26,346 bases of DNA. It comes from Spirogloea muscicola. Its lineage: Eukaryota > Streptophyta > Zygnematophyceae > Spirogloeales > Spirogloeaceae. Made by a program: the position numbers and the translations under genes. The notes under the pieces were generated by a model. It saw nothing but the letters and a program-made list of their open reading frames with translations. It did not search any database and was not told where the DNA came from. Positions 325 through 26,346 of the stretch are shown here, one piece after another. Each line of letters starts with the position of its first letter. The stretch's first letter is position 1. The stretch covers positions 62,511 through 88,856 of the forward strand of contig WELB01000099.1 in NCBI GenBank assembly GCA_009602725.1, in the 5' to 3' direction.

Positions 325-3300
325 CTTGCTACAGCCAAGGCCCTCCAGACAACTGCAGATACTCCGTGCCAGATATTGACCGACAATGTGTCACCGAGAT
401 GTGCAAGTAAGTGAGCAACTTGACAAGTAATTGGGTGCTGTCCAGCCCATACCTGTGCTGGTCTTGGAGCAAAAGTATGCTGCACCCTGATCCCAAGATC
501 CTAGATCATCATGGAGAAGGTCGAGATGCTGTTACTTGACTTAGGTGTATCACCTGATATGACGATTACCTGGGCTTGACCTCTTTCACCCTACAGCCGC
601 ACGGCCGTGACTCCACGATGCACGATCCAGGTCCACAAAAAGGACAACACCCCCTGCAACTATGTCACTGGAGCTGATTACGTGCCCCAATGCGCCAATC
701 TTACCTGCCGGTCAGTGCTTGGTCAAGCTTAACAATTTTCCATCTTCCGTTGGTTGCCTGCGAGCTCATCTTCTCTATGAGCACCTCGCCAAGTCAACAG
801 GCTATGTATGCCTTACACCTGCTCACGAATCTTGTATGCAGGGCCAGCGTCTGCACCTACAGTGGTCCCTTGCAGGTTAATCAACATTGCTATCAATACC
901 CACCTGGGTCTACCGCTGATAAATATCCATGGGATGCGCCATGCTTTGATGCGCGGTGCAATAGGTAGGTACTCCATCTGCAAGTCGTTTTCCAAAGCTA
1001 TAGATCAAGGCATGTATCCTACATTGAGGTGCAAGCAGTTAGGGCTGAGGTTGAGGTGTACTGTTGAGCTGAGGTTGTGGTCTAAGATTCTGAAGTTCTT
1101 CTCTCGCAGCAATGGATCGTGCATCTTCCACAACTTCTATGGCACTTTCAGAGACTGCAGGCCGCAAAACATGGGGAAGGCATGCCACAGCCAATTCTGC
1201 AAGTAAGACAGCGGTGCTAGTTCCGGTGCTTATGCTGCATCAGCTGCCCACATTTGCGTCCCTGCATTGTCTGCTCTCACTTAGCAGAAGTCAAGCAGTG
1301 GTTTATAGCTGACTTTTATTCTCAAACAGTGGAACCGGCTACTGCAATATCTACAACGACTACCCCGATGGAGTGGACTGCCTTCCCCTATATTCTGATA
1401 ATTGCGCAAACCGAACCTGCGTGTAAGTACTCAGCCCCTCTTATTAATCGGAGATGGCCTGAGGCTACGCACTGATAGCATGCCAAGGGTGCAAGGAGAC
1501 ACAATCAGCTACTTCTCATCTGTAAGCGTCTATTAAAGCGCCAAGAATTATCCTGGTGGTGGCGCCAAGTCAAGATGTGGAAATAGGGGGGACTCTATAG
1601 TAGATCTCCATACCTCGAAATTTTCCCAAGGTTCACAATACATCGTAATTTGACGGAAAGTTGTTGATTGTTGATGAACAAGTGGAAATCTGTGACGGTG
1701 GGTCTAAGTGGCAACTTCGATCTTATCGTGCTCTTTATTGCTGCAGAAAAGGCCGTTGTCAAGCCATGGCTAGTGGCAGGACATCTTGCGATCCCAGCGG
1801 GCATTGGAGAGGATATGGGCCTGTTGAGGACTATGGCAACGACCCTCCTTACTACGGCAGTTACCCTCCAGTACCGCCTCCCACTGAGTGCCTCCTTTAT
1901 CAATGCTCAGCACCAGATGTGTAAGTAAATACACCTCTTATAGAGATTTCGGAAAGTACAGCCATGAAGCCAACAAGCCACACCCATAGCTTCGTCCTAA
2001 GCCCTACGACATGAATAGCCCGTAAAAATTTTGCTGATGAGTCCTAGAAGCTCTTATGGCTACTCTAATGTACTCCATACAAGTGGCATGAGCATATGCC
2101 TCCAAACTTGCTTGCCTGATGTTACCCCTGGCCGCATGTCTTGTGGCAACCTTTGTTCTTTGCCGAGATCTGAAGGCTTGGGGAGTCAACATGTGCTGTT
2201 CTGCTGCAGCTACGGATCTTCCTTCTGTGATGCTGGTCAAGCTCCAAGCACAACGTCGTGTCAGAGCACTTACAAGTGCACTAATGCCTACTTATGTAGG
2301 TGAGCTCAAGGTGCTCAGCAAATGTGAGGATGAGTAGTAAAGCACATGGCTTGGCAGATGAGCAGACCTCTCTCTCTACCTGTTAAGATGACTTGAGGGC
2401 TTGATGCGCAGCCAAACGATAGACCACTTCAAGTCCTAAGCGAGAAGATTATAGCACTTCTGGTTAGCCAAAGATAAAGTTGGTGCACTGGCGGCATTAA
2501 GGCTCACCTGTTGGAAGCAGTGTCCTCCAGAGATGCGGCCGTTCTGATTTGTACATTGCTCATACCTCTAATACCTTCATGGCTCTAAAGTATGCACCAA
2601 GTGGTTGCAGAGATGGCTATTGTGACGAGAGCGTCAAGCACAATCTGACCGATGGCACAAATTGCGGCCCATCTACAGGAAATACCTGCTCCAAAAGAGA
2701 ATGCAGGTTATAATCCTCGAGACAATGTGAATGCTTTTGCTTTGCATGAAGCCATTGCATCGGAACACAGATCCCCAGGTTTTCACACATCTGTGTAATA
2801 TGTAGGGCATTAATGCAGAAACTCTTGATCACATGCACAGGTCTGGCAATTGTGAGATAGAGCAATTGTACCCAAACGGCACTTTCTGCGATGTCAATGA
2901 GATCAACGCCACTGCAATTGATCCCCGGTGCCAGGTCAACTCATGCAAGTAAGCTTCATGATTGTGGTTGACGGGTGCTTGACAGACTAGGAGTGCCTGT
3001 CTGCCTAGCAGAGTCCAGATTGGGGATGTACATGGTTATATCCTGGACATTATGCGAAGTTGGAAAGACATTCTGTTCCTCAGGTTGCACACGATCTGTT
3101 GCTAAACAAACCACTCCATGCTCTTCATATGAGCACTTGCTGTTTTCAATCTATTGCAGAGATGGCGAATGTACAGCTGTGGACAGCTTCAAGCCGGCCG
3201 GCACCCAGTGCTTTGGGGACGGCTGGAACTCAATCACGGAGATATATGGATGCCACAATGAAGAATGCTGTCCCCGTTGTGATGGTGCAGGCAAGTGCAT

Positions 3301-3481
3301 CGAAGTAATGGACGGCCAACCTTGTACCAACTGCACAGGTGGCTATTGCTCCGAACAGCCAGGTGGGTGCGAACCTAATGGTTGTGTATGCAACAGCGGT
3401 GAATGTCGCAACAATGTTGGCGTTTACTGGTATGGGATCTACTACCAATACGATTCCGGTGATGCTTACTACTTAGACTAG
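325..3481 (+). CDS. Gene A: multi-exon cysteine-rich extracellular protein, 5' part outside the window
   Basis: Ten exons are visible: 325-406, 597-710, 842-964, 1110-1202, 1330-1422, 1747-1920, 2210-2299, 2611-2706, 2841-2948 and 3160-3481 (TAG stop). All have GT-AG borders, and together they give about 430 codons in one open frame. The first starts in phase 1; all later introns are phase 2, so each exon is a symmetric module. Each holds about four to six Cys with a D/N-G-x-x-C core, for example DGTNC and NGTFC, and usually ends in C-K, C-R or C-V. Several N-x-S/T sequons (NLT, NCT, NGT) fit a secreted glycoprotein. The 1747-1920 exon is rich in Pro and Tyr. The last exon is Cys-dense and ends in a Tyr-rich tail. 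The same exon phases and closing-module layout as genes B and C suggest an LRR half lies left of the window. Introns hold no other gene. Function is unknown; the secreted location is inferred. Confidence 0.85.
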
Positions 3482-7458: not shown

Positions 7459-7665
7459 ATTGCTGAGGGATTCGTAGCTGCTTTGTTTCTTCTTGTGCTT
7501 GTATTTCTTCGCGCTTCCCCTAAGCGCGCCATTTCTTCTTTATGAGCAGCCGCAGGTCATAGACTGGTCTCCGAGTAGCGGGTCCCCTCTTCGGCTCCAA
7601 CGGACTCCGCACTTCGGCTCCTTCGGACCTTGTCCATTCCTTTGGGCTGGCCTTTCCCAGCCACC
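7459..7665 (+). mobile_element. Retroelement 3'-tail fragment
   Basis: A segment starting near 7459 repeats the tail that follows the stop codon at 6031, including GTAGCTGCTTTGTTTCTTC. About 150 bases on comes the GGACCTTGTCCATTC word and the hairpin core at 7624-7665. The protein-ending codons are not preserved here. Confidence 0.5.
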
Positions 7666-8997
7666 GGTCAATCTGGCCGTGCTGTTCCCTCTTCTCTATG
7701 AGCACTTCCCTTGGCCTGAACCAGAGACTCGGCCAATGCACGACTGGCACGTAGATGCATCGCGCGTGCCATTGACCAGCTGCAGCGGGAGGTTGGGGCC
7801 GGGGCCGACCAGGGAGGGGCGGGGCGGGCAGCCGCGGGCCCGCGTCGGCGCCGGCCATCGCTAAAGAGGCGGGTGCCATAATATGTCGGCACCGCCCAGT
7901 GGATAGGCCAAGCTCGGCAAATCCCCGCCCGCCCGGCGGCCCAGCACCCCGTTGGAGCGCCCACTAAGACAATGCCACGTTAAGACGCAGTGTGATTTGG
8001 CGCTTTCCTGGCCCCTTCGAAGTTGTACATCTTCCCTTATTTAGGCCTAGGCTTGCCAATCACAGCCATCGCCCTCTGCTGGAAGAGGCTTGCTTCTTGA
8101 ATGGCTCTGCGTGGACGACCTGCCATCGCCGCCTGGCTCCGTCAGAGCTGGCGGGCCAGGGTGGGCCATCGAAGAAAAAGAACAAGGCATCTTTGTCGGT
8201 GCAAGCGGGCTTGGAGCGAGGGCTGTGAAAAGCAGCCCGAAAAGAAGGACTAGGTCCGGGGGTGCCGGACAGCGGAAAGAAAGGGCGCGCCCATAGAGAA
8301 AGGGGGCCAGCAAAGCCAGCCCAGAAAGAATGGACAATGTCAGCGGAAAGCTGTGCAAGGCCAACCCAGAGACAAACAGGTCTTCAAGAGTTAGAGCGTC
8401 GTTCTTTTGGACTTGGACTTTCTGGGACGCTCTAAGGAGAAAGAAGAAAGTGCTCGCCAGTTGAGGATAGGGGCTGGAAAAGCGGCTTCCAAGAGAGAGA
8501 AGTGCTCGCCCATAGAGCGGTGGCTGGGAGAGGCCAGCCCAGGTAAAAGAATGCACAAAGGACGACGGAGTCCAGAGCAACGCACGCGCGGCACGTTCGC
8601 TCGCCAGTCTGAAATGAGAGCCCCGCCTGGTGGCCGCCTGACGTGAGCACCCAGGCTGGCGCCCTCCTGCCCGTTTGGGGGCCTCGTGTCGGCGAGCGTG
8701 CGTGTCGGTCAAGCCACCGCCGCCATGGGAAGCGAGCGGTCACCGATCCACATATGCCGCATATTATTTGTGCCTTGATCGGCACGGCTCCGTCATTTGC
8801 AGCTAGCCCACGGGCACGCCGGCGGGCGCGCAGCCGCGACTGTGCGCTGCGCCACGTAAGTGGGTCTTACCAAACGCCGCGGAAGCGGAAAAGAGGCAAA
8901 CGCATGAACGGAAGAGAGGCATGCTCTTCCATTTCACCCTTTTTGGGCTTGCTTACATACGTAATTGCTTGTGTACTTCAGCGCTTTTCGGCCCATT

Positions 8998-9118
8998 TCG
9001 GACCTTGTCAAATCTTTCCGGACTGGTTTTTCACGGCCGTCGCCCCCTTGAAAAAGAAGGAGCTCTCGCCCATTGAGGATAGGGGCTGGAACAGCCAGCC
9101 CAAAAAAGAATGGACAAA
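8998..9118. repeat. Two hairpin-tail copies in head-to-head arrangement
   Basis: A plus-orientation copy (8998-9047) and a minus-orientation copy (9063-9118) of the same tail repeat face each other with about 15 bases between them, making a roughly 120-bp imperfect inverted repeat. The minus copy has a perfect internal stem, GGGCTGG-AACAG-CCAGCCC. Confidence 0.6.
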
Positions 9119-9495
9119 GTACGAGAAGGGAGCCAAAAGGCTCACATTCTCTTCTTGGGCTGGCCTCTCATAGAGAAGAAGTGATCGCTCATAGAGAAGA
9201 GTGCCATCTCATAGCCATCGTCTTACTGTAGAGAAAAAAAAGAAACAGCTCTTATAATTTACGGCAATGGCTGTGAGAGGCCAGCCCAACGGAATGTACA
9301 AAATCTGGATGGGCTGAAACAAAGCAGCTGTCACCTTCTTTCTTCCAGAATGAAGAGTGCTCGCCCATGGAGCTGACTCAAAGAAGAAGGCTCGCCCATA
9401 AAGAAAGAGGGGCTGGCAAAGCCAGCCCAAAAAGAATGGACAATGTCCAAAGCCAAAGAATGAGAAGCCGAGGAAGGACTCCTCTACTCTACCAA

Positions 9496-12400
9496 TCACG
9501 ACAACATACTAGGGAAGCTCAGTACCCGCGAGTGAGCAACATCAGGTCCGAGTAGCTCGAGGCAGGGAAGGAGGCACTCCGCCGAGACCCGGAGGCCGCG
9601 GCCAGAGCGCGTCCTGCGCGCGTGTGGACAGCGTGGGCAAGGGATCGCTGGAACGATACCGCCAAGCGCATCAAAGACCTGGGCGAGCGACCCGGCGGCG
9701 CTGAAGCCGGGCAGCGCCCCGGGCGGACCCGACCGCCGATCAATAGCCTGACGAGCAAGCCGCTGGAGGAGATCCAGCCAGCGGCTGCCGAAGGCCCCGT
9801 GAACATCTATCGCCAGGGCCGCGAACTCATCACCGACCGGGTGATCGGCATATTTTTCCTCTTTTGCCCGGGCTGCCAGGCCGACCGCATGCCCTGCAAA
9901 CGACGCCGACCTGGTGGGGTTGCCGGAGTCGTAGCTGTCCGTTGTAACCACATCAGTGATGATGCGGGGACCGCCGCTGGGCAGGATAGCGACCAGGTCG
10001 GCGCGCCGGGTGTGCGACCGGCCGTCCTCGCCCCGCAGGATGGGCATGACTGAGGAGCACTCCACCGCCACCTTGAAGCCCGCCTCTATGAACACCCCCT
10101 GCATACCATCGCGCAAAAGATCATGGGAAGCGGTCCTCTCGCCTCCGTGGGCGCAACGGAGCATGTGCGCGGCCAGCTCCGCAGGGTCGGCGTGCCGGGC
10201 GCCGCACTCGCACTGTGTGACACCTGTAAGGCAGGGAGGGAGGAGCCCCAAGAGCCGATGCGCCGCCGTCCGGTAGACCTCGTCGGGCATGGTAAGTGCG
10301 GCATAGAGTGGGAGCGCTTGGAGCCACGCCGCCGCCCCAGGGGAAGAGGCGGAGAGAAGCCGAGCACGCCCGCGAACGTCAGACGGAGGGAGAAGCTCCA
10401 CCGCCTGGTCGGAGGCCGCCTTCTCGACCAACGCCGTGAAGCGTGCCTGAGCCCGCAGGTCTGGAGTGTGGGCGAGGTGCCGGAAAGGAACAGTCTGCTC
10501 GGACATGTTGGGGTGGACCTGCAGGAGCCTGTCGCGGGCAGTGCGGAGGGCGACTTGGAAGGGGAGTTGGCCTGTCTCCACATCGGCTGCCGCCCGCTCC
10601 AGGGCGCGTTGTCCGTGCACGAGGAACCGCTGACACATGGGGGCGGCCACCTGCGCCCAGCTTCCCAGGAAGGCCGCCTCACAGACGCGGGCAACTGAGC
10701 GGCATCCCAAGCCGCCACGACTGATCGGCAGGCTGGCCTGCAGCTGCGCAGCTTGGGTGGTGAGGAACGCCGGGTGCTGCACGAGGGAGGCTGCGGCCGC
10801 CATGATGCCGGTGTCGAAGGCCTCATACGCTGCCGTCACCGCCGGTGAGGGAAGGACGGTGCGGGCCAGGTAGTGGGGCCGCTGCGCGATGCACCGGGTC
10901 AGCATGGCGGTTGCCAGCTGCATGTCGTTCAGCGTGTGCAGGCGGGCCGCCGGCCGGAGGTGGTCCTGCAGCCGCCCCTGCAGCTGCTCCGCCACGAAGG
11001 CAGGTGCGCCCAGGGGGACGCCGAGGAGAGTGAGGCCCTCGGCCGGTGTCTGGCAGCCCACGGGCAGGCCCAGGTGGGCTGGCAGGGGACCTGCCGGGGA
11101 CCAGGCACAGCACTTGTCCGCCCTGATGTCCAGGCCGATCGCGCCCAGCTGCACCTGGAGGGTAGCAAAGGCTGCCACGACGTCTGCAGGCGGTCCCACC
11201 AGAGTGGTATCATCTGCGTACGTCGGCACCAGCACGCCAGGGTGAGCCGCGACCGTTGCCTGGAGCGCGCGATGGTGTGCCAGCGCGTAGTAGAATCCAG
11301 CGAGTGGATCCCCTTGACGTGCACCCCTGGTGGAGTGGAGGGTCTCCACCGCTCCCCCCTCCGTCCGCCACAGCAGGTCACTTGGCCGACCGTACCCCAG
11401 CCTGAAGAAGGGTAGAAGGCTGGGGAAGGCCTCTCTCAGCTCCTCCGCAATGACGTCCCGATCAACGCTATTGAAGGCATTGCGGACATCGACTGCCATA
11501 GCCACCCACTCCGGGTGCAGGTCCAGGGTGGCCCGTACGCCGTGCACGACCGTCTCGCCGCCGCTCCGTAGCCCCGCGCCAAACTGCTGGGGCGCCAGGT
11601 GTGCTTGGGCCTGCCCCGCGTGCTGTTGCCAGAGTGCGCGCCCCACCAGACGGTAGAGTACCTCCCCGATGGCGATGGGCCGGACCCCTCCGCCGGCCTT
11701 GCTGAGCGCCAGCAGTGTACTGGCGCACAGGACGTCCCGAACGCTGGCTGGGACCTGGTCGCGAGCTAGGAGCTGGCACACCTGGTGGAGCGCCGCGAAG
11801 TCGGCAGCGTCCCCCTCCAAGAAGATTTCCCGGAGGTGCTCGGTGAGCATGTGGGAAGGACCTCCAGCGGCTGCGCGGCGGCTGCTCTGCAGGGCCTGCC
11901 GCAGGGCGTCGGCGTCGAGGACCACCTCCTCCAGCAGGGTGAAGGTGTCCAGCCACGGGGGCAGGGGGTTGCGCGCCGGAGGGTGCAGGGAGTCCAGGGC
12001 CGCCCGCGTTGCGGCGTTGGTGGGCGCCAGCACCGAGTCGTCCAGGGCCTGGACCGCCCTGGACAACTCGCCCGCATGGCCGAAGCGTAGCGCCCGGCGG
12101 ACATTGGCGGCCCCGGCTGGCGCGGCCCGCGTGGCCCCATGGTCTGCCGCCGAGGCGGCCACCGCTGCATCGTGGCGTGCCAGAAGCTCCTCCCACTGGC
12201 CGCCCTCGAACATCTGGACGCGCTCCAGGAGGGGCTGCTGGCCCTGCCGGCGGCCGTCGTTGGGGACGCGCCCGAGCAGTAGCCGGGGGAAGAGGAGGAA
12301 CTGCTTCCAGGCCGCCTCGTCCCGATGGTCTCGGACAATCCGCTGCATCGCCGGGCGAAGCGCGCGGCGAATGTGTGGACGCACCCAGCGGGGAACGTGG

Positions 12401-12707
12401 CGGACGAGCGGGAGGGCCGCCTGGCGGTGGACGGCTGCCAGGTCGAGGCCGGCCAGCCACTGCCAGTGCTGAGGCGTGGGTGGGGACGGCGCGGGTGGGA
12501 CTGGCCGGCCTGGCCGGCCCCGGCGGCCACCTGCAGCAGCTGCGCCCCGCGCCTGCTCCGCACGGTTGTTGTTGCACACGCAGGCCCGTTCATGGAGGGT
12601 CCGGCCTGACCGCGTGGTGTAGGGCTTCGTGCAGTATTGGCACCGCGGGGGGTCGGGCGAGGCCGGTGAAGGCGGCGGCGGATGTAAGTAATTTTTTAAT
12701 GTATCCC
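9496..12707 (-). mobile_element. Non-LTR retrotransposon, near complete
   Basis: The element is read on the minus strand. Its 5' junction lies near 12685-12707: sequence homologous to the other duplication arm starts abruptly at 12708, while GC-rich element sequence lies to the left. The 3' end lies at or beyond 9496, because tail repeats of the same family continue to at least 9262. GC content is far higher than in the flanking host introns. No LTRs, clear poly(A) tract or target-site duplication could be identified. Confidence 0.75.
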
Positions 12708-12903
12708 AATGTGCATCATAGCTGCCAACCAGGTGCAAGTATGTGATGTCCTGACCTTGAGGCGGATACAGTAGAAGCAGGTACAGTATCGCACTTGTGC
12801 AATTCTGAGCTTCTGCTGCATAACCTCTACTTTGTAATGATATCACCAGTGCAAGCTCAATTTTGCAGCTGCCTATGCACACTAATGTTGGGGGCAGTTG
12901 CAC
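9496..12903 (-). CDS. Reverse transcriptase polyprotein of the non-LTR retrotransposon
   Basis: The open frame is 1135 codons. It has a C2HC zinc finger at residues 88-108 (C88, C91, H104, C108), a reverse transcriptase domain from about 395 to 600, and a second Cys/His finger (C898, C900, H913, C917). RT motif A is VDVRNAF with D472, motif B is RGARQGDPL (526-534), and motif C is YADD (562-565). A restriction-endonuclease-like region follows, with RRADLV (D969), IITDVV (D984) and KEEKY (1014-1018). Finger, RT, finger, endonuclease is the order known for R2-type elements; the exact clade is not determined. The first 65 or so residues are antisense host intron (12708-12903), and no Met occurs between there and about residue 186. 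The native start is therefore lost or unidentified. After about residue 1077 another frame gives the ending shared with other copies, so the last 58 residues may be frameshifted. Confidence 0.85.
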   Translation of the reverse strand: MQLPPTLVCIGSCKIELALVISLQSRGYAAEAQNCTSAILYLLLLYPPQGQDITYLHLVGSYDAHWDTLKNYLHPPPPSPASPDPPRCQYCTKPYTTRSGRTLHERACVCNNNRAEQARGAAAAGGRRGRPGRPVPPAPSPPTPQHWQWLAGLDLAAVHRQAALPLVRHVPRWVRPHIRRALRPAMQRIVRDHRDEAAWKQFLLFPRLLLGRVPNDGRRQGQQPLLERVQMFEGGQWEELLARHDAAVAASAADHGATRAAPAGAANVRRALRFGHAGELSRAVQALDDSVLAPTNAATRAALDSLHPPARNPLPPWLDTFTLLEEVVLDADALRQALQSSRRAAAGGPSHMLTEHLREIFLEGDAADFAALHQVCQLLARDQVPASVRDVLCASTLLALSKAGGGVRPIAIGEVLYRLVGRALWQQHAGQAQAHLAPQQFGAGLRSGGETVVHGVRATLDLHPEWVAMAVDVRNAFNSVDRDVIAEELREAFPSLLPFFRLGYGRPSDLLWRTEGGAVETLHSTRGARQGDPLAGFYYALAHHRALQATVAAHPGVLVPTYADDTTLVGPPADVVAAFATLQVQLGAIGLDIRADKCCAWSPAGPLPAHLGLPVGCQTPAEGLTLLGVPLGAPAFVAEQLQGRLQDHLRPAARLHTLNDMQLATAMLTRCIAQRPHYLARTVLPSPAVTAAYEAFDTGIMAAAASLVQHPAFLTTQAAQLQASLPISRGGLGCRSVARVCEAAFLGSWAQVAAPMCQRFLVHGQRALERAAADVETGQLPFQVALRTARDRLLQVHPNMSEQTVPFRHLAHTPDLRAQARFTALVEKAASDQAVELLPPSDVRGRARLLSASSPGAAAWLQALPLYAALTMPDEVYRTAAHRLLGLLPPCLTGVTQCECGARHADPAELAAHMLRCAHGGERTASHDLLRDGMQGVFIEAGFKVAVECSSVMPILRGEDGRSHTRRADLVAILPSGGPRIITDVVTTDSYDSGNPTRSASFAGHAVGLAARAKEEKYADHPVGDEFAALAIDVHGAFGSRWLDLLQRLARQAIDRRSGPPGALPGFSAAGSLAQVFDALGGIVPAIPCPRCPHARRTRSGRGLRVSAECLLPCLELLGPDVAHSRVLSFPSMLS

Positions 12904-13007
12904 AGCATGACGGTGCAGTGTTATGTTGAAAGTTTGTACCCTCCAAAGATCCTTGTCCTGTTATTGACCAATGCTCAACTGTGACCTTCTGGTGCTCATT
13001 ATCTCAG

Positions 13008-16000
13008 CAATCTCTGCTGCAACAATCTCACGGGCAGCATACCGACCACCATCACGCAACTCGCTAATCTCGCCAACTTGTGCGTGGCTAGTTTCTCTCA
13101 CACCTTACTCGAGATGATTGGTGCTGTAGACCTTCTTGCACATGATCTTCGCCATCCTCCAGATCTAGCCCGTATGCTACCGGTGTTCCAGTTGTTAGCC
13201 TTGAGCCTAGGCCTTCATACTTTGCTGTACCTTTACTTCATCTCTACAGCATTTTGGACCACAACGGCCTCAGCGGTGCGCTTCCCAACCTACAAGATAT
13301 GCGTTCGCTTCAGAAAATGTGAGAGCCAAGCATTTGCATGCAGAGCTTGCCTTTATTGTGAGCTCTGTCCGCTCATAACTCATCCGTCTCAGCCACCATC
13401 CCATACGCCAAGATCAATCTGACACTCACATGTGGTACCAAACGCTTGTATCAAGATCAAATGTAAGATGTAGCTGTCGCGCATGTGAAGGCTGATCCAC
13501 CAGCTTGCCCGCATGAGCGGTGTACTTTTGCCAATCCAGTCAAATGGCGCACAATCAGTTGACTGGCCCCATCATCGTATATCTCGACGTTCTATATGGG
13601 GAAACAGCCCTCACAACCGTGTATGACTTGCCATGCATCTTCCCTCCTGGCTTGCATAAGCATCTGAGTTGCAAGCATGAAGTTCTTCAATCCATGAGCT
13701 GCCCACAGACAGATTGGTGGTGCAAGTTCCGTGCTCTGGGATCCGACGAGCTGCAGACATGGTCGTAGAAGCACAACTGGCAGATTGTTCGTGCATTGCT
13801 CCATCCAGGGACTTTTCGTACAACAACTTCACTGGATTGTTTCCAATTAATCTTGTCTGATCGACTCTCCAAGCTCCAAGTCCTGTAAGACTCCCCAGTG
13901 CCTGAGCAGCAAAGCAACTGCCACAGATCATGAACGCTTCTAGGAAGTCAGATAATTACCAAATGTAGCACAGCGTGACAATGTCAGGTAATCTGTATTC
14001 CTGAGAGTCAACAAAGCCCATTAGGCACCAGATGTGCATGCTTGAGTCACAGGAGGACAAGGCAGCCTCCAGACATGTGAGAAGTGCAGTCCGCAACAAG
14101 ATCAAGCTATTGAAGCTGCTACTGATTGTAATGGGTGTGTGCCTGTGTATACCCTGTTCTTGCAGCAACCTTGCACGGAATCAGTTTGGAGGGGCGCTGC
14201 CAGACTTGGCCCCTTTTAAATTACCGCCCTTTTACAATCTTGTGAACTTGAGGAATTTGTAAGGGACAACAAACCTTGAAGCACATAATGCCGATCAGGG
14301 ATGTCACTCCGTTCCCATCACAAATGGGGGATCCTTTCTAAGTCACATACCTTGGCCATTATCGCTTTTGTGGCAGAGACATTTCCTACAACAACTTCCA
14401 GGGCGTATTCAATCTGAGTTTCTTTTCTTCAACCCAGAACTTGACATCGGTGGACGTCACCGGCAATTACTTCACTGGGCCAGCACCCAACTTCACAGTC
14501 GAGGGGAGCCCCGTTCACACCAGCACCAACTGCTTCGACGCCCCTGCCAAGCACCAGAGGCCAGCTTCGGTCTGTGCGGCCCTACCTGCGCCACGTGGGT
14601 GCCATGGATGCTCCCCCCCCCCCATCCTGCCCCATGCTCCTACACCCTAAATCCTACGCCCTAAAACCTAACGCTAAACCCTTACACCCTAAACCCATAC
14701 TACCTAACTCTTACACCCTAAACCGGAAAGCCTCGTGCTCTCTCAGCACCCCTCAGTCAGGGCTCGCTTCCTACCCCCTTGTCCCGGCTCTTCTGGGTCT
14801 ATGTAGACCCTCGTGAAGCGCTTGAAGCGCCCTGACTTCCTGATACCTCAGTGCCAGGTGCACTGAGTCTGCAAAAGGTGTGCGTGGCCCATGCAGGATG
14901 CTCTACACTCTTTGGAGTATATTTGACAGAGGTATTGCTGCTTCGTGTTGACAGTGTCTCTCCGCTGGGCATGTGCAGCCTGCTTCGTGGACATCTACGG
15001 CGTCAGTTGCTCGAACTGGCAGCCGGGCTTGCTGGGCCAGTATGATTTCCAAGACCCGTGTGCCTTTGCGTATTGCAAGTAAGTGCTGACTGCAGACCTT
15101 GAGAGGCTATTGAGCGCAGCTGCTTGGTCATCTGTCATATGGAGGCATCAGAGAACAGGAGTCTTACTTCAGCACCTTTTGCTTGCTAAGTAGTACTGCA
15201 TGTCTCCTACTAAACGAATGTTCCATCACAGTAATAGAGCTTGTAAGACTTGCATCCTTAAATTTTTGCTTGTCTCTGCTCCTCCCAGCTCTACGACCTT
15301 ACAGTGCACGCGGGGTATTAAAGATGATCGATCGTACTGTAATACTTTTGTTGCTGGATATGACCGCACTTGCGCAACTTCCGGCTGCGTGTCAGTGCTC
15401 TAACCTTCTTGCCACTCAATGTGCTCCTTGTCAGTTTGAGCTGTTGAGCAGATTGGCACCCTGTGCCTAAGATAGCTAGTTGGGCAAAATTATCCACTGG
15501 ACATGGAGTTGTCTCTAGTTGGTACCTGTGCAAAGCAGCTGTTCATTGCCTTTAGACAGTGAGCATGCAAGCGTGACCTGATCGACTGGAGCAATGTACT
15601 CACATGTCAGCTGCTGGGTTGGTGGTCATACTCTACAGGGAGGGGTCATGTGTATTCGTGTCCTCTCATCCTGCTGGTTCTTCCTGCTATGCGAACCCCG
15701 ACTTCAATAATCTCCAGTGCCAGCTGCAAGGAGCATGCGAGTCAGGCTGCACCATCTGTATCTGAAGACTTTCTGACGGGGCTCGCGAAGCATGAGAAGA
15801 TCGTACAAACACGCCTTCTAAACATGCAAGCACCCTAGGTGCTGTGAGCATTTCTGCTGGGCACTAAAAATAGTGAGACATCCTTGGCAGTGGTGATGGA
15901 CATTGCGTGTACGACTACGCTGCGACCGCCAATACATCTTGTGACTACATCCCTGGGAATGACTTCTGCAGCTTCCAGAAGTGCAGGTGGATAACTCGTG

Positions 16001-17057
16001 CATGATGCGTGAGGACCATGCAATGGCACATGCTCTTGCATGACCCATGCATGCGCAGCTTGACCATGGCATTACCTTGTGCAGACACTGTGCTACATTT
16101 GCCAATGTTTAGCCTGACATTTGTCATCAGCATGTGTGCCAGTCTTATCTGCCTCTGGTGCTTCTTTACGTAGGAATGGCACCTGTGCCCAAATCTCTCC
16201 GACTCCGGAAGGCGGCGATTGCGGACTGGCTTTGAACGTTATAGACTTCGTCCCAGGTCCCTTTGCTGAGAACAAGGGCTGTGCTACTGCTTCGTGCATG
16301 TAGGCCACATACCCGTGTGAGAGCCATAGAACATGGTTGTAGAACGGAGACCCACCTGTGTGAGCCATACAACATGGTTGTAGAAGTGAATACCTGGGTG
16401 GGTTTCAAAGTACGCCCACTTCTCAGATGGCATCCTGCATTCTTGATTGCAAACATATTTCTAGCACTCGTGAGGACCTGAGCTTTCAACTTGAGTTTGA
16501 CTGTGTCATCCTTGTGCTGACCAATACAGGAATGGCACGTGCACGCTGAGCCTCCTCTTTCCAGATGGCACTCCTTGCAACATAACCGGCTTAAATACAG
16601 AACTCATCAGTCCCGAATGCGTCACTGGCAAGTGCAGGTGAAGCGAAGAGATACTTTTGAGCTGCTTTGTTGTATCTTGCTATTCTCCTGCCACAGCCTG
16701 TGTGACTCAGGGGCTTAGCATTGACAGATGTCACACCTAAACAGCTGTCTCCTTGAGTTGATAGCATGTGCCATGGGTTCTTGCAAGGCTGAGCTTTAAA
16801 GCTGCTCACTTCTCTTAACATGCTCTCCAGCTTTACTTGACGTCATGCCGCCTTTGCAGTGAGGGCATGTGCCAGACTGACAGCTACAAGTCGGACGACA
16901 CGCCTTGCGTTGCGAAACGGGTTGCTGCAAGTTCTGTGATGGACAAGGACTCTGCCCTCCTAACGAATCTTCCCCTTGCTATAACTACGAAGGTGGCTAC
17001 CCTGGCCAATGTGATGATGCCAATAACTGCATTCCCGACGACCCCTATGAAGGATGA
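13008..17057 (+). pseudogene. Gene B: 5'-truncated LRR/cysteine-rich gene copy with two reading-frame lesions
   Basis: Exons equivalent to gene C lie at 13008-13079, 13250-13318, 13540-13620, 13809-13884, 14166-14258, 14377-14594, 14979-15078, 15289-15390, 15639-15740, 15891-15986, 16174-16299, 16530-16637 and 16860-17057. Six carry LRR sequence (for example LTGSIPTTI) and seven carry Cys-rich modules. The N-terminal cap and the first three LRR exons of gene C are missing, because retrotransposon sequence begins in the preceding intron. Exon 13809-13884 is 76 bp rather than a multiple of three and has TGA at 13858-13860, where gene C stays open. In the last exon a segment near 16910-16922 is 7 bases shorter than in gene C. 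The frame then runs to a different stop at 17067, although the original frame downstream is intact and Cys-rich to 17057. Splice sites are conserved, so it decayed recently or can still be transcribed. A sequencing error could explain one lesion but hardly all of this. Confidence 0.75.
14645..14722 (+). repeat. Degenerate telomere-type CCCTAAA repeats in an intron of gene B
   Basis: CCCTAAA occurs at 14645, 14659, 14687 and 14716. The spacings of 14, 28 and 29 are close to multiples of seven, with degenerate heptamers between. This is the complement of TTTAGGG, the plant-type telomere unit also used by many green algae. It lies in the phase-1 intron between the LRR and Cys-rich halves. A matching stretch is in gene C. 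Confidence 0.75.
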
Positions 17058-17594
17058 CATTATATGAGCGGATGACACAGCTATCAACATTTGCTCTACA
17101 AGATCCTCGATTATGGGATGGCTACTCAATTTACAAGACCCTCAAACTTGGGACGGCAATCCTCAAATATGGGATGGCAACTTCAATGTGTCGCCCACCT
17201 CTCAGACCACCCTCGTCTTCAGATCAAGAGCAATTTGCATGTCTAAGCAAGTCCTTTACACCAGTAGACGCATCCTTAGCAGCTATGAGGCTGCTCAACA
17301 CCACCCTCGTCAAGTCCTCCAAGTTCGTCCTCCTTTTTTATGTGCCGCTGCTAAGACTAGCAAGAAGACTCAGGCAGTTATACTCTAGAGCTTGTGAGAT
17401 TGTCAATCAAACTCGAGCCAAGTTTCTAGTTGTTTGTGATGTTTGTGAGCATTTCTCTGGTGACCTCGAGCTCGAAGCATGAAAGACTCATTGAACACTA
17501 CAAACTTCAGTGCTCATCGGACTCAAAGCACTTCAAACGAAAAGTGATGTTTGACCTATTTCATTCCAATCTTGTCATCGTTACTCGAGTTCGC

Positions 17595-17667: not shown

Positions 17668-18295
17668 TGTTACCTTTGAGACTCTCTTTGAGGGTACTCT
17701 TGGCTCATTCTGGTTTCTTGTTCACACGCTGTGCTTGTGACTTGTCCATTCGATCCCGTTTTACTAGTAAATTGTTCATTTTCATTCCAAGTTCTCAATT
17801 GCCAACCACGTCATCTGTTGGTTACTCCTATTCTGTGTGTTGTTTCTATTCGATATCAAAGTAGCTCCTAAAGTCCTAGCAGACCTTCTTTCACCTCAAT
17901 TCATTAAGTGCCCACCAAGCGAGACTGATTTGGTTGCCTACTTCTGTACTAATCTGACTTCTCGACGTTATATGGCAGTCGACACTCTGTGGCACGACAC
18001 CGCTCACAGAGGCCGGACTAGCGTAGATTCTGCCAGACCGCAACTTACAGATGCCGGACTAGCACAGGTCCACCTGGCCGCACACAGAGCCGCACCCATG
18101 GTGGGGGCAGCCATAGCTAGGGCGCACAGAGCAGCGCGATCGCCCCTAGATTTACTTTAATTTAGCCCGGTGTGCCGGGGCATCCCTTTTTCACTTCGTT
18201 GATTCTTTTCTCTGGGCAGGGAGGACGGCACAGCTGTAGCGCATCCCACCATTTGTGGGCGCCAACCAGTGCTGTTAAAGGCAAGCGCGGCAAGA

Positions 18296-18620
18296 TTCAC
18301 TGGTGGCTGGGGAAGGCCAGCCCAAAGGAATGGACAAGGTCTGAAGGAGCCGGAGTGCGAAGGACTAGGACTAAGACATCAGCCAGGGGACGCTCAGTAA
18401 CCTCTAGTCAGGAGATGCAAGTCTGAGTAGCTAGCCGACGGAAAGACGTCGCCCTGACGGAAGCCGGAGGCCGCCGCTAAAGCTCGGCCTGCGCGCAAGT
18501 GAACCTCGAAGGCAAGGGAGCCCTGCAAAGAGATGGCCAAGCGCATCCGGAAGACGTTAGCGAGGGACCCGGCGACATTGAAGCCGGGCTGCTCGCCCTG
18601 CTGCCCGAGGCGGCGGGCCG
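18296..18620 (-). mobile_element. 5'-truncated non-LTR retrotransposon fragment
   Basis: On the minus strand the frame from about 18620 to the stop at 18394-18396 matches the end of the retrotransposon at 9.5-9.7 kb. It includes PGF-x(2)-AGSLA, then RAGRALAAASG, and ends SYSDLHLLTRGY. The tail with GACCTTGTCCATTC and the hairpin core follows at 18345-18296. Only the last 75 or so codons are present, the usual outcome of incomplete target-primed reverse transcription. Confidence 0.75.
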
Positions 18621-18643
18621 CTGCACGCCTGTTAGAAGAAAGT

Positions 18644-19849: not shown

Positions 19850-20155
19850 GTAGTGATCAAGACAAGTCTTGAATGCTGCGAGCTTGAAGCAACCAAAAGA
19901 GAATGACAATATACACAAAGATCAAGAGATTCGGCCCTCGACCTTTGTTAATGAGATTCGTGCTCCCATCTGTGCGCAAGGCTTTGGCTCAGACATCACT
20001 TGAGTAACCAAATACTGGAAGTCCGATGAGCAATGTATTTTGGATTGAGGCAGTGTAATTTCGATGAGCAAGTTTGTAGTGGTCATGACGAGGTTTTTAT
20101 GCTGCGAGCTCGAGATGACCGAAGTGATGCTCACAAACATTACAGACGTCAAGAA
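19850..20155. repeat. Diverged direct repeat at the inner edge of the right arm
   Basis: The segment at about 19850-19928 and the segment at about 20068-20155 share GTAGTG-TCA, ATGCTGCGAGCT and later CAAGA words in the same order. The second belongs to the inverted-duplication arm; the first lies outside it and looks like an older, diverged direct copy. Confidence 0.4.
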
Positions 20156-23100
20156 ACTTGGCTCTTAAGATTGATTGACAATCTCACAAGCTCTATGCTT
20201 TAAAGCCTGCATCTTCTCGCTTGTCATAGCAGCAGCAAGTCAAAAAGGAGGGCAAAATTGGAGGACTTGAGAGGGTGTTTTTGAGCAGCCTCAAGGCTGC
20301 AAAGATTGGCCCAGTGGTGTATATGACTTGCGTTAAAGCTTAGACCTGCAAAATCTTCTTAATCCGAACAAGAGGGTGATCTAAGAGGAGGGCAACACAC
20401 TGCCTTTGCCTGAAATTGCCATCCCAAATCTCGAGGCTCTTGTGAAGTGAGTAGCCATCCCAAAGTCGAGGGTCTTGTAGAGCAAGTGTAGACAGCTGTG
20501 TCTTCCGCTCGTGTGATGTCAATCCCCTCCGTCAAAGATGCAGCGAGTACCCAAGCATTGGCCACTGTGGCCATCATAGTAGCAAGAGCCAGCGTTGTCA
20601 AAGAGGCAGGTTCCTTGGTCATCACAGAAGGCGCAGCAACCATAGGGGCACGGACCACCGCAAGGCGTGTCGACCGGCTTGTAGCTGTCAGTCTGACATA
20701 TGCCCTCACTGCAAAGGCGGCATCACGTCAAGTAAAGCTGGACAGCATTCCAAGAAAATCTAGCAGCTAGACAGCTCAGCCTTGCATTATCCATGGGAAA
20801 GGCTACCAACCCAAGAGTGAGCTATTTGAGTAATAAATCTGCAATGCTGAGGCCCTGTCACACAGGCTGTGACAAGGAAATGGCAAGATGCAATGAAAGC
20901 AGCTCAAATTTGTCTCCTCGCTTTACCTGCACTTGCCACTGACGCAGTCGGGATAGGATGTTGTATTCAAGCCAGTTATGTTGCAAGGAGTGCCATCTGA
21001 GAGGAAATTCAGCGTGCACTTGCCATTCCTGTAATATATAGAACAAGGATGAAAGAGTGAAAGTCAACAGGAAAGCCCAGGTCCTCACGAGGGCTAGGAG
21101 ATGTTTGCAAAGTTGAAAGAGATGCAATCTGATAAGTGGGCGTACTTTTGAACTCCTGGCTGGGTTTCAGTCTACAACCATGTCTATATGGCTCACACGG
21201 GTATGTGGCCTACATGCACAAAGCGGTAGCACAGCCCTTGTACTCAGCAAAGGGACCTGGGCCGTAGCCCATGATGTCAAAGGCTTTTGCGCAATTAGTG
21301 CCATCTGGAAGAGGAGAGAGCTGAGCACAGGTGCCATTCCTACATGGAGAAGGACCAGAGGCAAATAAGACTAGCACACATGCTGATGAAGGATGTCAGG
21401 CTGAACATTGGCACATGTACCACACTATCTGCACAAGGTAATGTCATGGTCACACTGCGCATGCATGGGTTATAGATTGTGCCATTGCATGATCCTCGCG
21501 CATCATGGACGGCTTATTACCTGCACTTTTGGACGCTGCAGAAGTCATTCCCAGGGATGTAGTTACATGTTGTGTTGGCAGTTGCAGCGTAGTCGTACTT
21601 GCAGTGTCCAACACCACTGTCAATGATGTGTCACCAGTGTTAGTGCCCAGCAGAAATGCTCACGGGTGCTTGGATGTTGAGAAGACATGTCTGTACAATT
21701 TTGTTAATGCTTCGCAAGCCCCTCCAGAAATCTTAAGATACAGATGGTGCCTTACTCGCATGCTCCCTGCAGCTCGCACTGGAGATTAATATAGTCGGGG
21801 AATAAGTAGCAGGAAGAACCAGCGGGATAATAGCTCATGACTGCGCACGACCCGTTCCTGTAGAGGCCGACCACCAAGCCAGCAGCTGACTTGTGAGTCC
21901 ACTGCTGCAGAAACGATCAGGTCATCCTTGCATGCCCGATGTCATGAAGGCTATGAACAGCTGCAGATTGGGACAGGGTGCCGATCCGCTCAACTACTCA
22001 ACAATAAGGAGCACATTGGTTGGCAGAAGGTCGGAGCACTGACCGGCAGCTGAAACTGGCGCAAGAGGAGTCAACTCCAGCAACAGAAGCACAATATGAT
22101 CCATCACCAAAGTTAGCCCGCGTGCACCGTAAGGTCGTAGAGCTGGAGAATGGCAGAAACAACCATAAACGTGAGGATGCAATAGTAGCATCGCCATATT
22201 CCTGTGATGGAACATTCTTATATCAGGAGGCATGCAGTATTACTTGGCAAGGAGAAGGTGCTGAAAGAAGGCTCTTATTCTCTGATGTCTCCAGCTGACA
22301 GATAAAGAAGCAGCTGCGCTCAACAGCCGCTCAAGGTCTGCAGTCAGCACTTACTTGCAATCCGCATACACACAAACGTGTTGGATGCTAGCCAGGTCCT
22401 GGCCAAGCAAGCCTGGCTGCCAGTTCTGGCAACTGAGGCCGTAGTTGTCCACCGAGCAGGCTGCACATGCCCAGCGGAGAGAAACTTTACCACGAAACAG
22501 CAATCATCTGTCACATATACACCAATGATTGTGGAGCAACCTGCATGGACTGGTCGATCTTCACAGCACTTCTAAAGACTCAATGCAATTGCCGTTCGAG
22601 TATCCAGAAATGAAGGGCGCTTCATGCGCTTCACGAGGGTTCACGGAAAACCAGTGGAGCTGGGACTATGGGCAGGGGACAGGGGGGAGGAAGTGACCCC
22701 TGAGCGAGGCGTGTTGAGGGAGCACGGGGGCAGGACGAGGCTGTTCAGGATTGAAGGTTAACGGTAAGGGTTTTAGGTTTAGGGGGTTGGAACAAGGATA
22801 GGGGGAGGGTCTATGGTACTCACATGGTGCAGGTAGGGCCGCACAGACTGAAGCTGGCCTCTGCCACTTTGTAGGGCGGCTGAAGCAGTTGAGGCTCGTG
22901 TGAACGGGAATTCCCTCCTTTGTGACGTTGTTGGGTGCTGGCCCACTGAAGTAGTTATCGGTGATATCCAGCCATGTCAAGTTCTGGGTTGAGGAGAAGA
23001 AGCTCAGACTGAACACGCCCTGGAACTTGTTGCGGGAAATGTCTCTGCCAGAAAACCAATGATGGTAAGATGTGTGACTTAGAAAAGGATTCCCCTTCTG

Positions 23101-24705
23101 TGATGGGACATCCCTGATTGGCATCTTATTCTTCAACCATCTTGTCCCTTACAATTTTCTCAATTTCCCAAGATTGGAAAAGGGCTTGGCTATCAGATTC
23201 AGGTCCGGCAGCGCCCCTCCAAATTGATTTCCTGCAATGTTGCTGCATGATCAGGGGATACACACATACGAATTAGTAGTAGCTAGATGCCAGATGTTGT
23301 TGCGGACTGTACTTTTCGCACATCTGGAGGCCTCCTTGTCCTCCTGTGACACAAGCACACCTGGTGCCTAACGTGCTTGTCAGCTCTCAAGAATTCAAAC
23401 TACCTGCCATTTGCACGCTGTGCTACATTTGGTGATTATCTAACTTCCTAGAAGCGTCCGTGGTCTGTGTGACAACTGCTCTGCTACTGAGGCACTAGGG
23501 AATCTTACAGGACTCGGAGATTGGATTTTGTATAGTCTAACAGATTAACCGGAAATGTTCCAGTGAAGTTGTTGTACGATAAATCCCTGGATAGGGCAAT
23601 GCAACGAAGGATCTGCTGGTCAGTTGTGCTTCTAAGACCATGTCAGTAGCTTGATCAAATCTCAGAGCAAGGAGCCTGCTTCATCATTTTGCATTGCGCA
23701 GCTCATGGACATGAACAATCGCATGCTTGCAAGTCAGAAGCTCATGCAAGGTCATACACGATTTCGAGGACAATATTCGAGGAGTACACTTCCGGTACAA
23801 TGATGGGGCCAGTCAACTGATTGTGAGCCACTTGACTGCATTGGCAAAAGTACACCACTTATGCGCGCTAGCTGGTGAATCAAAAATTCACGTTCCGACA
23901 GCTGCATTTTGGGTTCGATCTTAGGAGCTTGGTACAGACGTTTGGTACTACTTGAAATGCCACATTATGTTCAGTGTTTGTGATTGTGGCTGGAATGTAC
24001 GAGTCATGAGCGGATAGAGCTCAAGAGAATGGCAAGCTCTGCATGCAAATGCTGGGTTCTCACACTTTCAGAAGCGCTCCCATATTTTGTATGTTGGGGA
24101 TCCCACCAGTGAGGCCGTTGTAATCCAAAATGCTGTAAAGATGGGGAATTTGCTGATGCTGTAAAACTGAAGTAAAGGTCACAACAAAGTATGAAGGCCT
24201 AAGCTCAAGGCTAACAAGCTGGAGCACCCGTAGCATGCGTGCTAGATATGGAGGATAGTAAAAGACCATGTGCAACAAGATCTACAATACCAATCCTCTC
24301 CAGTAAGGTGTGAATGAGAAACTAGGTGCGCACAAGATGACGAGACGAGAGAGTTGTGCTATGGTGGTCGGTATGTTGCCCGTGAGATTGTTGCAGCAGA
24401 GATGGCTGAAGAATTGAGCAACAGAAGGTCACGGTCGAGCATTTGTCAAAAACAGGACGTGGATTTGGGGAGGGTACAAAGTTAAAACCAAAACACTGCA
24501 CATTCTGCTGTGCAACAGCCCCTTAAATCAGTTTGCATAGGCAGCTGCAGGATCAGCGTTCACTTGTGATATCAGTACACAGCAGAGATGATGCAGCAGA
24601 AGCTCAAAGTTATCCACAAATGCGATGCTGTACCTGCTTCTACTGTATCTGCTTAAGGTCAGGACAACATATACTTGCACCTGATTGGTAGCTATGATGC
24701 ACATT
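19987..24705 (-). repeat. Right arm of the large inverted duplication (contains most of gene C)
   Basis: This is the reverse-complement counterpart of 12708-17559. Exon order, exon phases and many intron sequences are kept, as is the 3' flank past the stop. The outer edge near 24705 is the point where the left arm meets the retrotransposon. Gene C continues uninterrupted beyond it, which marks the right copy as the more complete one. Confidence 0.85.
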
Positions 24706-25775
24706 TAGGTACTTAAGAGAAGAGCTCACAGCAGTTCCAGCACAGATAGCTGCCCGATGCTCGATGGAATGCTCCCACTTAAGAAGTTGTGGTCAAGGTT
24801 CCTGCAGGCGAACACGTGACATGAAGCACACAGTGACCTTACTTGCGTTTATCGGGCCACTCAAAAGTGCATCAAGAATATCAGAGAAGCTCATGCTGCA
24901 AGGTGAGCAGAGCTTGAGTTGCTCACAGAAGGACGAGTTGGGTGAGAGCACCGACAGTCGGGGGGATGTTTCCTAAGAGCCGATTGCCATAAAGATATCT
25001 TGCACAGCATGCAAAACCGAAACAAGGTCAGAGACTCAGTGACACTGGTTTGCAACCAGTTGACAGGCATTAGAAGCACCAGCTTGTACACGGCTGCTGC
25101 CAATAAGATTCTGATGTGGGTACTGCGAGCAGGAACTTGTGGAGAGCAGAGAGCAGGTCTCACAAGCACGTGAGGCCCGTCAGGTTGCCAATGGAGGCGG
25201 GGATGCTCCCGCTGAGGTTGGCGTTCACGACCACTCTGCCATGCAAAGGCTTGGCCGCACTCGGTTCCGTCAGGGCGACGTCTTTCCGCCCTCTAGCTAT
25301 TTGGACCTGCGCTTGCTGACTAGAGGCTTCTGAGAGTCTCCTTTTCCGACGTCTAAGCGCTTAGTATCTTGCCATCTGGCCCTTTCAGACCTTGTCCATT
25401 CTTCTGGGCTGGCTTCTCACAGCCACTGCTGTCAACCTGGAAGCGCTTTTCTGATCAACCCATGTCGACGGACCACATCGTCGACGGAGCTTGGCATGTG
25501 CACTTGTGTGGATGGCCTAGAGAGTCCGTGTTTGCCACCAGACTCCTGGAGGTGAGGATGGAGACAATGCGAGCCCAAGCGCGTTCAAGGGCTGGGATGT
25601 GGGGATTCATATACTCACAGCGAGCTGACGCGGTTGGTGCTCACGTCGCACTGGATGCCGTACCAGGGGCAGTCACCACCAGTAGCATTGCAGCCGGCGC
25701 AGGGGTCGGATCCCACCCAGCTCGCCAGTATCGGCGGCTGAAACACGGCGGCCTGGAAGTCCCGCAGGGCCGCCA
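20519..25775 (-). CDS. Gene C: secreted LRR protein with C-terminal cysteine-rich modules
   Basis: Seventeen exons on the minus strand join in one open frame of about 600 codons: 25775-25619, 25235-25164, 24998-24927, 24801-24730, 24405-24334, 24132-24064, 23835-23758, 23586-23509, 23242-23153, 23044-22824, 22460-22355, 22142-22044, 21857-21756, 21616-21521, 21339-21214, 21028-20927 and 20708-20519 (TGA). Residues 1-52 form an LRR N-terminal cap: ALRDF, SWVGSDPC, then CPWYGIQCD and RVSSL. Residues 53-253 are eight LRR exons of 69-90 bp with cores such as LSGSIPASIGNL and LLGNIPPTV. Residues 254-327 hold a terminal LRR and linker. Residues 328-599 are seven Cys-rich modules with D-G-T-P-C cores; the last has about a dozen Cys. 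No kinase or membrane segment follows the modules. A signal-peptide exon must lie upstream (phase-1 acceptor at 25776) but was not found. A cell-surface or secreted role is inferred; the ligand is unknown. Confidence 0.85.
22757..22790 (-). repeat. Degenerate telomere-type repeat in an intron of gene C
   Basis: The + strand holds TAAGGGTTTTAGGTTTAGGG, a degenerate TTTAGGG run; in the gene C sense this is CCCTAAA. It sits in the same phase-1 intron as the run in gene B, so it predates the duplication. It is shorter than the gene B version. Confidence 0.7.
25238..25460 (+). mobile_element. 5'-truncated retroelement fragment inside the first visible intron of gene C
   Basis: The + strand frame reads FRQGDVFPPSSYLDLRLLTR then G-F-stop (TGA at 25331-25333), the same ending as the 18.4-kb copy. 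The GACCTTGTCCATTC word and hairpin core follow at 25390-25435. It is inserted antisense in the intron between the LRR cap exon and the first LRR exon of gene C. The acceptor of the 25235 exon sits only a few bases from the fragment edge. Confidence 0.7.
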
Positions 25776-25984: not shown

Positions 25985-26187
25985 GCCTGGCCTGTGGCTC
26001 CGCTAACATAGCCACGAACACCCTCTGTATGCACCTGCCTGGCTTTCACAGCCGCTATATTGCTATCAGCAGCTGCCTCCTATTCTGCCTGGCCTGTGGC
26101 TCCGCTAACATGGTCACGAACACCGTCTGTGTGCACCTGGCTGGCTTTCACAGCCGCTTTTGATATCAGCAGCGGCATCTTATCTTC
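25985..26187. repeat. Two-unit 102-bp tandem duplication
   Basis: Units at 25985-26086 and 26087-26187 both start GCCTGGCCTGTGGCTCCGC and share CACGAACACC, GTGCACCTG-like and GGCTTTCACAGCCGCT segments. They differ at several positions, mainly at their right ends. The GGCTTTCACAGCC word in each echoes the hairpin repeat core. Confidence 0.85.
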
Positions 26188-26346
26188 GAGGGGGCCCATG
26201 GCTGCGAGGCGCCAGGCCGAGGAGGAAGCGCGCGGGCCTAACGGCGCCTGGCGAGGCTAACGGGGGCGCTCACGGTCGGGGTGCGGCGCGCCGGCGGGCA
26301 GGCGCCGCCGCGCGGGGAGCTCCGCCGCGCCGTCAGCCGCGCCATT
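26188..26346. other. GC-rich sequence at the window edge, no supported gene
   Basis: The segment resembles the GC-rich block at 5.7-6.0 kb (GGCGCGCCGGCGGGC, CGCCGCGCGG). It could be a promoter-proximal GC island of gene C, whose signal-peptide exon has not been located, or another repeat. ORFs here are compositional. Confidence 0.4.

What the first reader, a model, noticed from the sequence alone, without database searches (positions are those of the whole stretch)
20519..25775. LRR ectodomain joined to an array of single-exon cysteine modules
Gene C combines a plant-type LRR cap and about nine LRRs with seven Cys-rich modules and no kinase or membrane anchor after them. The frame and the splice phases agree across 17 exons. 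Cores such as N-G-T-C then D-G-T-P-C then C-V-x-G-K-C superficially resemble the Cys-rich repeats after the catalytic domain in ADAM/ADAMTS proteins, but here they follow LRRs. I do not recognise this domain order. It could be a secreted recognition or cell-wall protein family of an alga.
Basis: partly seen in the sequence, partly recalled or inferred. Interest (0 to 1): 0.8.

Follow-up and report, generated by a model that had tools for sequence, protein, structure and literature searches.

The report
Secreted algal LRR-cysteine-array protein family
A green alga carries a multi-copy gene family for secreted proteins that join a plant-type leucine-rich-repeat head to a chain of disulfide-rich modules; I could not match the chain to any known domain, and the conserved binding face of most heads suggests a shared partner outside the cell, perhaps in the wall.

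Summary
On the minus strand, 17 exons (25775-20519) splice in one frame into an LRRNT cap, about ten LRRs, a Cys-containing cap and seven Cys-rich exons, then a stop; no kinase or membrane span was found. An 18th, signal-peptide exon lies 5', cut by an assembly gap. The join is no model artefact: 17 type-1 loci keep LRR-then-Cys order; 237 of 250 intron positions and phases agree; alignment scores are at least 932, against at most 146 in controls. A second type with a longer array (window gene A; 17 loci) has LRRs in 4 of 6 loci fetched. Pfam, PDB sequences, viral and prokaryotic contigs gave no credible relative of the Cys half. The LRR concave face is conserved (omega 0.14 against 0.65 elsewhere in the LRRs), also into type 2, but not in three divergent type-1 loci; in the array little but cysteine is kept. 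This argues against a freely diversifying immune receptor and for a wall or matrix protein with a shared partner, LRX-like in logic. Other algae could not be searched.

The parts
26274..26346 (-). gene C exon 1, 3' end only: end of the signal-peptide exon, cut by the assembly gap that starts at 26347
   Evidence: the stretch aligns at 84-88% to upstream DNA of L006, L010, L012; hydrophobic start whole in L003, L004, L006, L009, L016
25619..25775 (-). exon 2: LRRNT cap (DPCAGCNATGGDCPWYGIQC)
   Evidence: Pfam LRRNT_2 E 0.0076, 16.9 bits, below its cut-off of 20.7
23153..25235 (-). exons 3-10: 25235-25164, 24998-24927, 24801-24730, 24405-24334, 24132-24064, 23835-23758, 23586-23509, 23242-23153; about one LRR per 69-90 nt exon, joined in phase 2
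   Evidence: LRR_1 E 1.3e-20
22824..23044 (-). exon 11: last LRRs plus cap NCFSRPTKWQRPASVCAA; joined to the Cys array in phase 1
22355..22460 (-). exon 12: first Cys-rich exon (not the canonical module)
20927..22142 (-). exons 13-17: five single-exon four-Cys modules, 22142-22044, 21857-21756, 21616-21521, 21339-21214, 21028-20927
   Evidence: four Cys columns invariant in 20 chosen module sequences
20519..20708 (-). exon 18: ten-Cys terminal exon and TGA stop; no hydrophobic tail
325..3481 (+). gene A: second type of the family, ten Cys exons visible; its 5' part lies in the gap left of the window (LRRs are present in 4 of 6 fetched relatives)
12985..17054 (+). gene B: type-1 paralog, broken: LRRNT and first LRR exons not found between it and gene A, a retrotransposon lies before it, and its last exon changes reading frame

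Best explanation
Gene C encodes a secreted, probably glycosylated LRR protein of a multi-copy green-algal family. Shown: plant-type LRR head, Cys-rich C-terminal array, signal-peptide exon in paralogs, no membrane span, constraint on both halves. Inferred: the concave face of the LRR head binds an extracellular partner shared by most paralogs (a Cys-rich peptide or a wall glycan), while the array of small modules, two disulfides each, is a stiff, protease-resistant rod that holds the head in the cell wall or extracellular matrix, its length set by the number of modules (seven Cys exons in type 1, about ten in type 2). In logic this is the LRR-extensin (LRX) design with a disulfide rod in place of the extensin.
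For: Concave strand positions (-4, -2, -1 from the LRR Asn; 30 sites) have entropy 0.38 against 1.33 at other LRR sites (117 sites); permutation p 5e-5, the floor of the test; pooled omega 0.14 against 0.65 with like dS (0.288 and 0.294), so the protein and not splicing is constrained (12 of 17 type-1 loci for entropy, 6 pairs for omega). Type-2 models L019, L020, L022, L023, not used in that test, keep gene C's residue at 20-25 of 27-30 of these sites against 26-41 of 95-113 other LRR sites. In the array 30 of 34 Cys but 29 of 234 other residues are invariant in 12 loci; omega 0.08 against 0.73. Thirteen N-glycosylation sequons in gene C, two of them at module starts. Signal exon in 5 of 23 models; no 17-residue stretch in the last 250 residues has mean Kyte-Doolittle hydropathy above 1.51. 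The head matches plant LRR ectodomains, LRX2 (6qxp, E 9e-31) among them. LRX design and RALF binding: PMC7733995, passages.
Against: No transcript, protein, localisation or ligand evidence. Three type-1 loci left out of the test (L013, L014, L015) do not share the concave face: 11 of 30 sites each, like their other LRR sites (31-34 of 105-107). No extensin or other known wall-binding motif; wall retention is a guess from the build. The array could not be modelled (last exon pLDDT 48). The LRR register was set by eye.
Confidence: 0.4

Rival explanations
1. A soluble recognition receptor or inhibitor (like a PGIP, or a receptor-like protein without its anchor) of a repertoire that binds microbial molecules.
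For: Multi-copy, clustered genes with broken members; LRR head of plant receptor type and PGIP hits; L013-L015 carry a different head face on the same array; LRR receptors are reported in nearly all chlorophytes while LRR kinases are nearly absent there (PMC2939053 and PMC3268121, passages).
Against: In the 12 loci tested the face that would diversify is the most conserved part of the LRRs (omega 0.14), and it is kept into type 2.
Confidence: 0.25
2. A gamete or cell adhesion protein: the LRR head recognises a partner cell and the Cys rod projects it.
For: Head plus modular rod, rod of two lengths.
Against: No membrane span at the C-terminal end in 21 informative models; no data on sex or stage were available.
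Confidence: 0.15
3. The Cys modules are small secreted peptides (defence or inhibitor modules) freed by proteolysis from the LRR carrier.
For: One module per exon with little conserved besides Cys; two loci show the array without an LRR found upstream (L018, L021).
Against: Exon matches keep the same order along the array across paralogs. Cleavage sites between modules were not examined systematically.
Confidence: 0.1
4. Two neighbouring genes wrongly joined by the reader's model.
For: The LRR-to-Cys junction is phase 1, unlike the phase-2 junctions on either side; the junction is not reproduced in L013.
Against: All 17 type-1 loci and 4 of 6 type-2 loci have the same order; the phase-1 junction recurs in 16 of 17 type-1 models.
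Confidence: 0.02

Closest known systems
Plant LRR-extensins (LRX)
   Same: N-terminal plant-type LRR domain with a repetitive C-terminal part and no kinase (LRX2 head 6qxp matched at E 9e-31; design from passages of PMC7733995).
   Different: The C-terminal part is a Cys-module array with no Ser-Pro(3-5) extensin repeats.
Plant LRR-RLK and LRR-RLP ectodomains (GSO1, FLS2, MIK2, ERL1, TMM)
   Same: LRRNT-like cap and 24-residue LxxLxLxxNxLxGxIP repeats. Exons of 72 nt, one LRR each, are also known from plant LRR kinases (recalled).
   Different: No kinase, no transmembrane segment, Cys array after the LRRs.
Polygalacturonase-inhibiting proteins (PGIP)
   Same: Secreted cap plus about ten LRRs (1ogq, E 1.7e-26).
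   Different: PGIP end after the LRR cap (recalled); here some 275 further residues of Cys modules follow.
ADAM/ADAMTS disintegrin and Cys-rich domains
   Same: Loose DGTxC...CxxGxC spacing (recalled motif).
   Different: No Pfam model or PDB chain of this kind matched; no metalloprotease in the gene.

Membership tests
Plant-type LRR proteins | N-terminal cap and tandem 24-residue plant-specific LRRs | tested here: met
   Pfam LRR_1 E 1.3e-20, LRR_8 4.9e-11; LRRNT_2 only 0.0076, below its cut-off; plant LRR ectodomains in the PDB
LRR receptor kinase (RLK) | transmembrane span and kinase domain after the LRRs | tested here: not met
   No kinase in Pfam; stop at 20521-20519 and no hydrophobic span
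LRR receptor-like protein (RLP) | C-terminal transmembrane span or GPI signal | tested here: not met
   Hydropathy of the C-terminal 250 residues: 23 models, of which L011 and L016 end before the last exon and tell nothing; no GPI predictor was run
LRX | C-terminal extensin repeats SP(3-5) | tested here: not met
   Sequence of exons 12-18 read directly
LRX | retention in the cell wall and RALF-type ligand | not testable with these tools
   needs protein work
ADAM/ADAMTS Cys-rich domain | match to disintegrin or ADAM Cys-rich profiles | tested here: not met
   Pfam on the whole protein and on five Cys regions of five loci, max E 10 with HMMER's filters on; PDB phmmer and hmmsearch
ADAM/ADAMTS Cys-rich domain | same fold | tested here: inconclusive

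The most novel reading that the evidence does not exclude
An undescribed superfamily of at least 34 loci in one green alga, secreted LRR heads on disulfide-module rods of two lengths, forms a protein scaffold of the algal wall that reads one conserved ligand, with a swapped head in one subgroup: a chlorophyte counterpart, reached independently, of the land-plant LRX-RALF wall-integrity system, with a new disulfide fold in the rod.
Probability: 0.2. Interest if true: 0.75.

Novelty: new variant of a known kind. Interest (0 to 1): 0.5.

Why it matters
Green algae are reported to have almost no LRR receptor kinases (PMC2939053, PMC3268121, passages), so what their secreted LRRs do is open. A multi-copy family with a conserved concave face and an unmatched Cys module gives defined proteins, residues and a domain of unknown fold for testing that, and a new profile for annotating algal secretomes.

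Tried and rejected
Chance or model artefact: rejected by paralogs and controls. Misjoined genes: rejected. ADAM kinship: no profile match. Viral or prokaryotic relatives of the terminal exon: 114 and 66 stretches matched a pattern, none confirmed by tblastn; this tests only patterns from that exon. Subtelomeric placement: no TTTAGGG in the first 400 bases of C99 or the last 400 of C20. Naming the alga: no RuBisCO large subunit found in the assembly, and none of the 20 papers listed for the assembly numbers held them. Structure: one AlphaFold job on the last exon, pLDDT 48, not used. Literature: the listings (open-licence PMC texts, best rows only) showed no title on this architecture; three papers were seen in passages only. 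The 34 loci are not 34 independent genes: the start of C99 and the end of C20 are collinear (four type-1 pairs in the same order, mean identity 78-91% over aligned exons and introns; intergenic match), so they may be a segmental duplicate or two haplotypes.

Results against, and rows dropped: L010, L013, L014, L015 and W_B were left out of the entropy test before counting; looked at afterwards, L013-L015 do not share the concave face (11 of 30 sites each), L010 and W_B do (22 of 27 and 16 of 21). The omega pairs are six chosen close pairs; the 11 pairs overlap. In-frame stops occur in 5 of 17 type-1 models (L003, L004, L010, L014, L016). The models hold 24 junctions beyond those shared with gene C, and 13 of 250 expected ones are missing. 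Omega of the Cys half is 0.41-0.86 in 10 of 11 pairs and 1.04 in the pair with gene B. The pattern search for a signal exon found none in 17 of 23 models and a non-hydrophobic one in L010.

Full report
Gene structure. rebuild the gene on the minus strand. Exons 25775-25619, 25235-25164, 24998-24927, 24801-24730, 24405-24334, 24132-24064, 23835-23758, 23586-23509, 23242-23153, 23044-22824, 22460-22355, 22142-22044, 21857-21756, 21616-21521, 21339-21214, 21028-20927 and 20708-20519 splice with GT-AG borders into one open frame of 599 codons and a TGA. Of the 16 junctions, 14 are the best-scoring option of the junction script, one (exon 16 to 17 of this list) ties for best, and one (22044 to 21857) was placed by hand because the script's window missed it. 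Upstream, 26346-26274 matches the end of the signal-peptide exon of paralogs; its start is in the gap. The window is gapped on both sides: 2143 N in L001 to the right, 8911 N in L017 to the left.

Domains. Pfam lists seven families, all LRR-type: LRR_1 at 1.3e-20, LRR_8 at 4.9e-11, and a sub-threshold LRRNT_2 among them. The LRR half matches plant receptor ectodomains in the PDB, best GSO1, with LRX2 and PGIP lower (60 of 99 rows shown). The Cys half gave no Pfam row for gene C; five Cys regions of five loci gave three weak rows below cut-off; in the PDB one antibody light chain at E 0.68 and nothing by module profile. Twenty module sequences chosen from this and related genes align with four invariant cysteines.

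Family. A search of the genome with the Cys half gives 92 exon matches, which I group into 17 type-1 loci: six on C99 (window genes B and C among them), six on C20, one each on C453, C100, C3, C24, C274. I aligned the gene C protein with splicing to all 17 (two from the window, 15 fetched). All 17 hold LRRs followed by the array; 14 of 17 show the LRRNT exon (not W_B, L002, L007); 12 of 17 models have no stop. Identity of the 16 others to gene C is 46-89%. Intron position (within one residue) and phase agree at 237 of 250 places; scores are 932-2738 in the 16 paralogs against 88-146 in 34 control alignments. The LRR-to-Cys junction recurs in 16 of 17, not in L013. Window gene A is a second type with a longer array (ten Cys exons visible). 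A type-2 last exon finds 17 loci at E 4e-10 or better, plus two weak places. Of six fetched, four (L019, L020, L022, L023) have LRRs upstream; in L018 and L021 none was found in the stretch fetched, where Pfam sees an rRNA-processing gene and a sub-threshold ferric-reductase match. That makes at least 34 loci, not all independent: the start of C99 and the end of C20 are collinear.

Organism. Four RbcS loci, each in two exons, point to the green lineage; RbcS is nuclear there and plastid-borne in red-lineage algae (recalled). Genes C and A end in TGA and TAG, so the usual stops are in use. The species was not identified.

Secretion. A hydrophobic start ending in RRLL or RRLLP...HP with a GTG donor lies upstream of five of 23 models (L003, L004, L006, L009, L016). 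In all 23 a stop follows within 25 codons of the last aligned residue, and no stretch of 17 residues in the last 250 exceeds a mean hydropathy of 1.51; L011 and L016 are aligned only to the exon before the last, so 21 are informative.

Selection. Omega is below 0.6 for the LRR half in 11 of 11 pairs and below 0.86 for the Cys half in 10 of 11 (pairs overlap). Within the LRRs the exposed positions of the concave strands are the slow ones and sites outside strand and scaffold are fast; plant immune repertoires show the reverse (recalled). Type-2 heads keep the same concave residues (24 of 30, 25 of 30, 20 of 27, 22 of 30) while other LRR sites agree at 23-38%. L013-L015 do not (11 of 30 each): their array is type 1 but their head differs, as the long LRR branch also shows, so heads and arrays may have been recombined. 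Two adjacent cysteines on the concave side of the fourth repeat core (CCNN) are kept in 13 of 17 type-1 and 4 of 4 LRR-bearing type-2 models. In the array the cysteines are kept and most else drifts.

Mechanism. A conserved concave face suggests a shared partner; an array in which little but Cys is kept suggests a scaffold; no membrane span means wall, matrix or medium. The nearest known design is LRX, with an LRR head that binds RALF peptides and an extensin part likely involved in wall interaction (PMC7733995, passages). Membership in LRX is not claimed: the extensin part is absent. Shown: gene, family, secretion signal in paralogs, selection. Inferred: ligand, wall retention, rod shape, disulfide pairing, glycosylation.

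Novelty. Six literature searches in open PMC texts showed no such architecture in the rows listed. No eukaryotic sequence collection could be searched, so relatives annotated elsewhere as hypothetical proteins are likely. Hence new variant of a known kind, interest 0.5.

Noticed in passing
window 11700-11020 (-), element about 9500-13000: Reverse transcriptase domain (RVT_1 E 1.8e-13) of a retrotransposon directly before the 5'-truncated gene B; it may have cut gene B. The missing LRR exons were not found between 3501 and 13000.
   Followed up: partly
window 18283-18629: Roughly 350-base interspersed repeat with many copies at 92-94% identity on other contigs (40 of 5049 candidates scored).
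   Followed up: no
window 17076-17523 and 20020-20500: Seven pairs of inverted arms, 26-77 nt, 80-96% complementary: the 3' flanks of convergent paralogs B and C.
   Followed up: partly
window 5349-9318: Scattered copies, both orientations, of a motif around GGGCTGGCC...TCACAGCCA; possible short mobile element. Similar text sits in a 102-base tandem repeat at 25995-26203 upstream of gene C.
   Followed up: no
G000 C99:4k-88k and C20:1037k-1121k: Collinear segments, type-1 pairs 78-91% identical including introns: segmental duplication or strongly diverged haplotypes.
   Followed up: partly
L013, L014, L015: Type-1 array on a different LRR head (regular repeats, concave face not shared, no CCNN): possible head swap within the family.
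   Followed up: partly
window 24405-24334 and relatives: Vicinal Cys-Cys on the concave face of one LRR (HLCCNN), kept in 13 of 17 type-1 and 4 of 4 LRR-bearing type-2 models; could be a vicinal disulfide or metal site.
   Followed up: partly
L018, L021: Type-2 Cys arrays without an LRR found upstream: truncated copies or Cys-only genes.
   Followed up: partly
G000 C10, C22, C29 first bases; other contigs: Plant-type TTTAGGG repeats at the very start of some contigs; the other listed places (C4, C9, C27, C32, C35) were not checked against contig ends.
   Followed up: no
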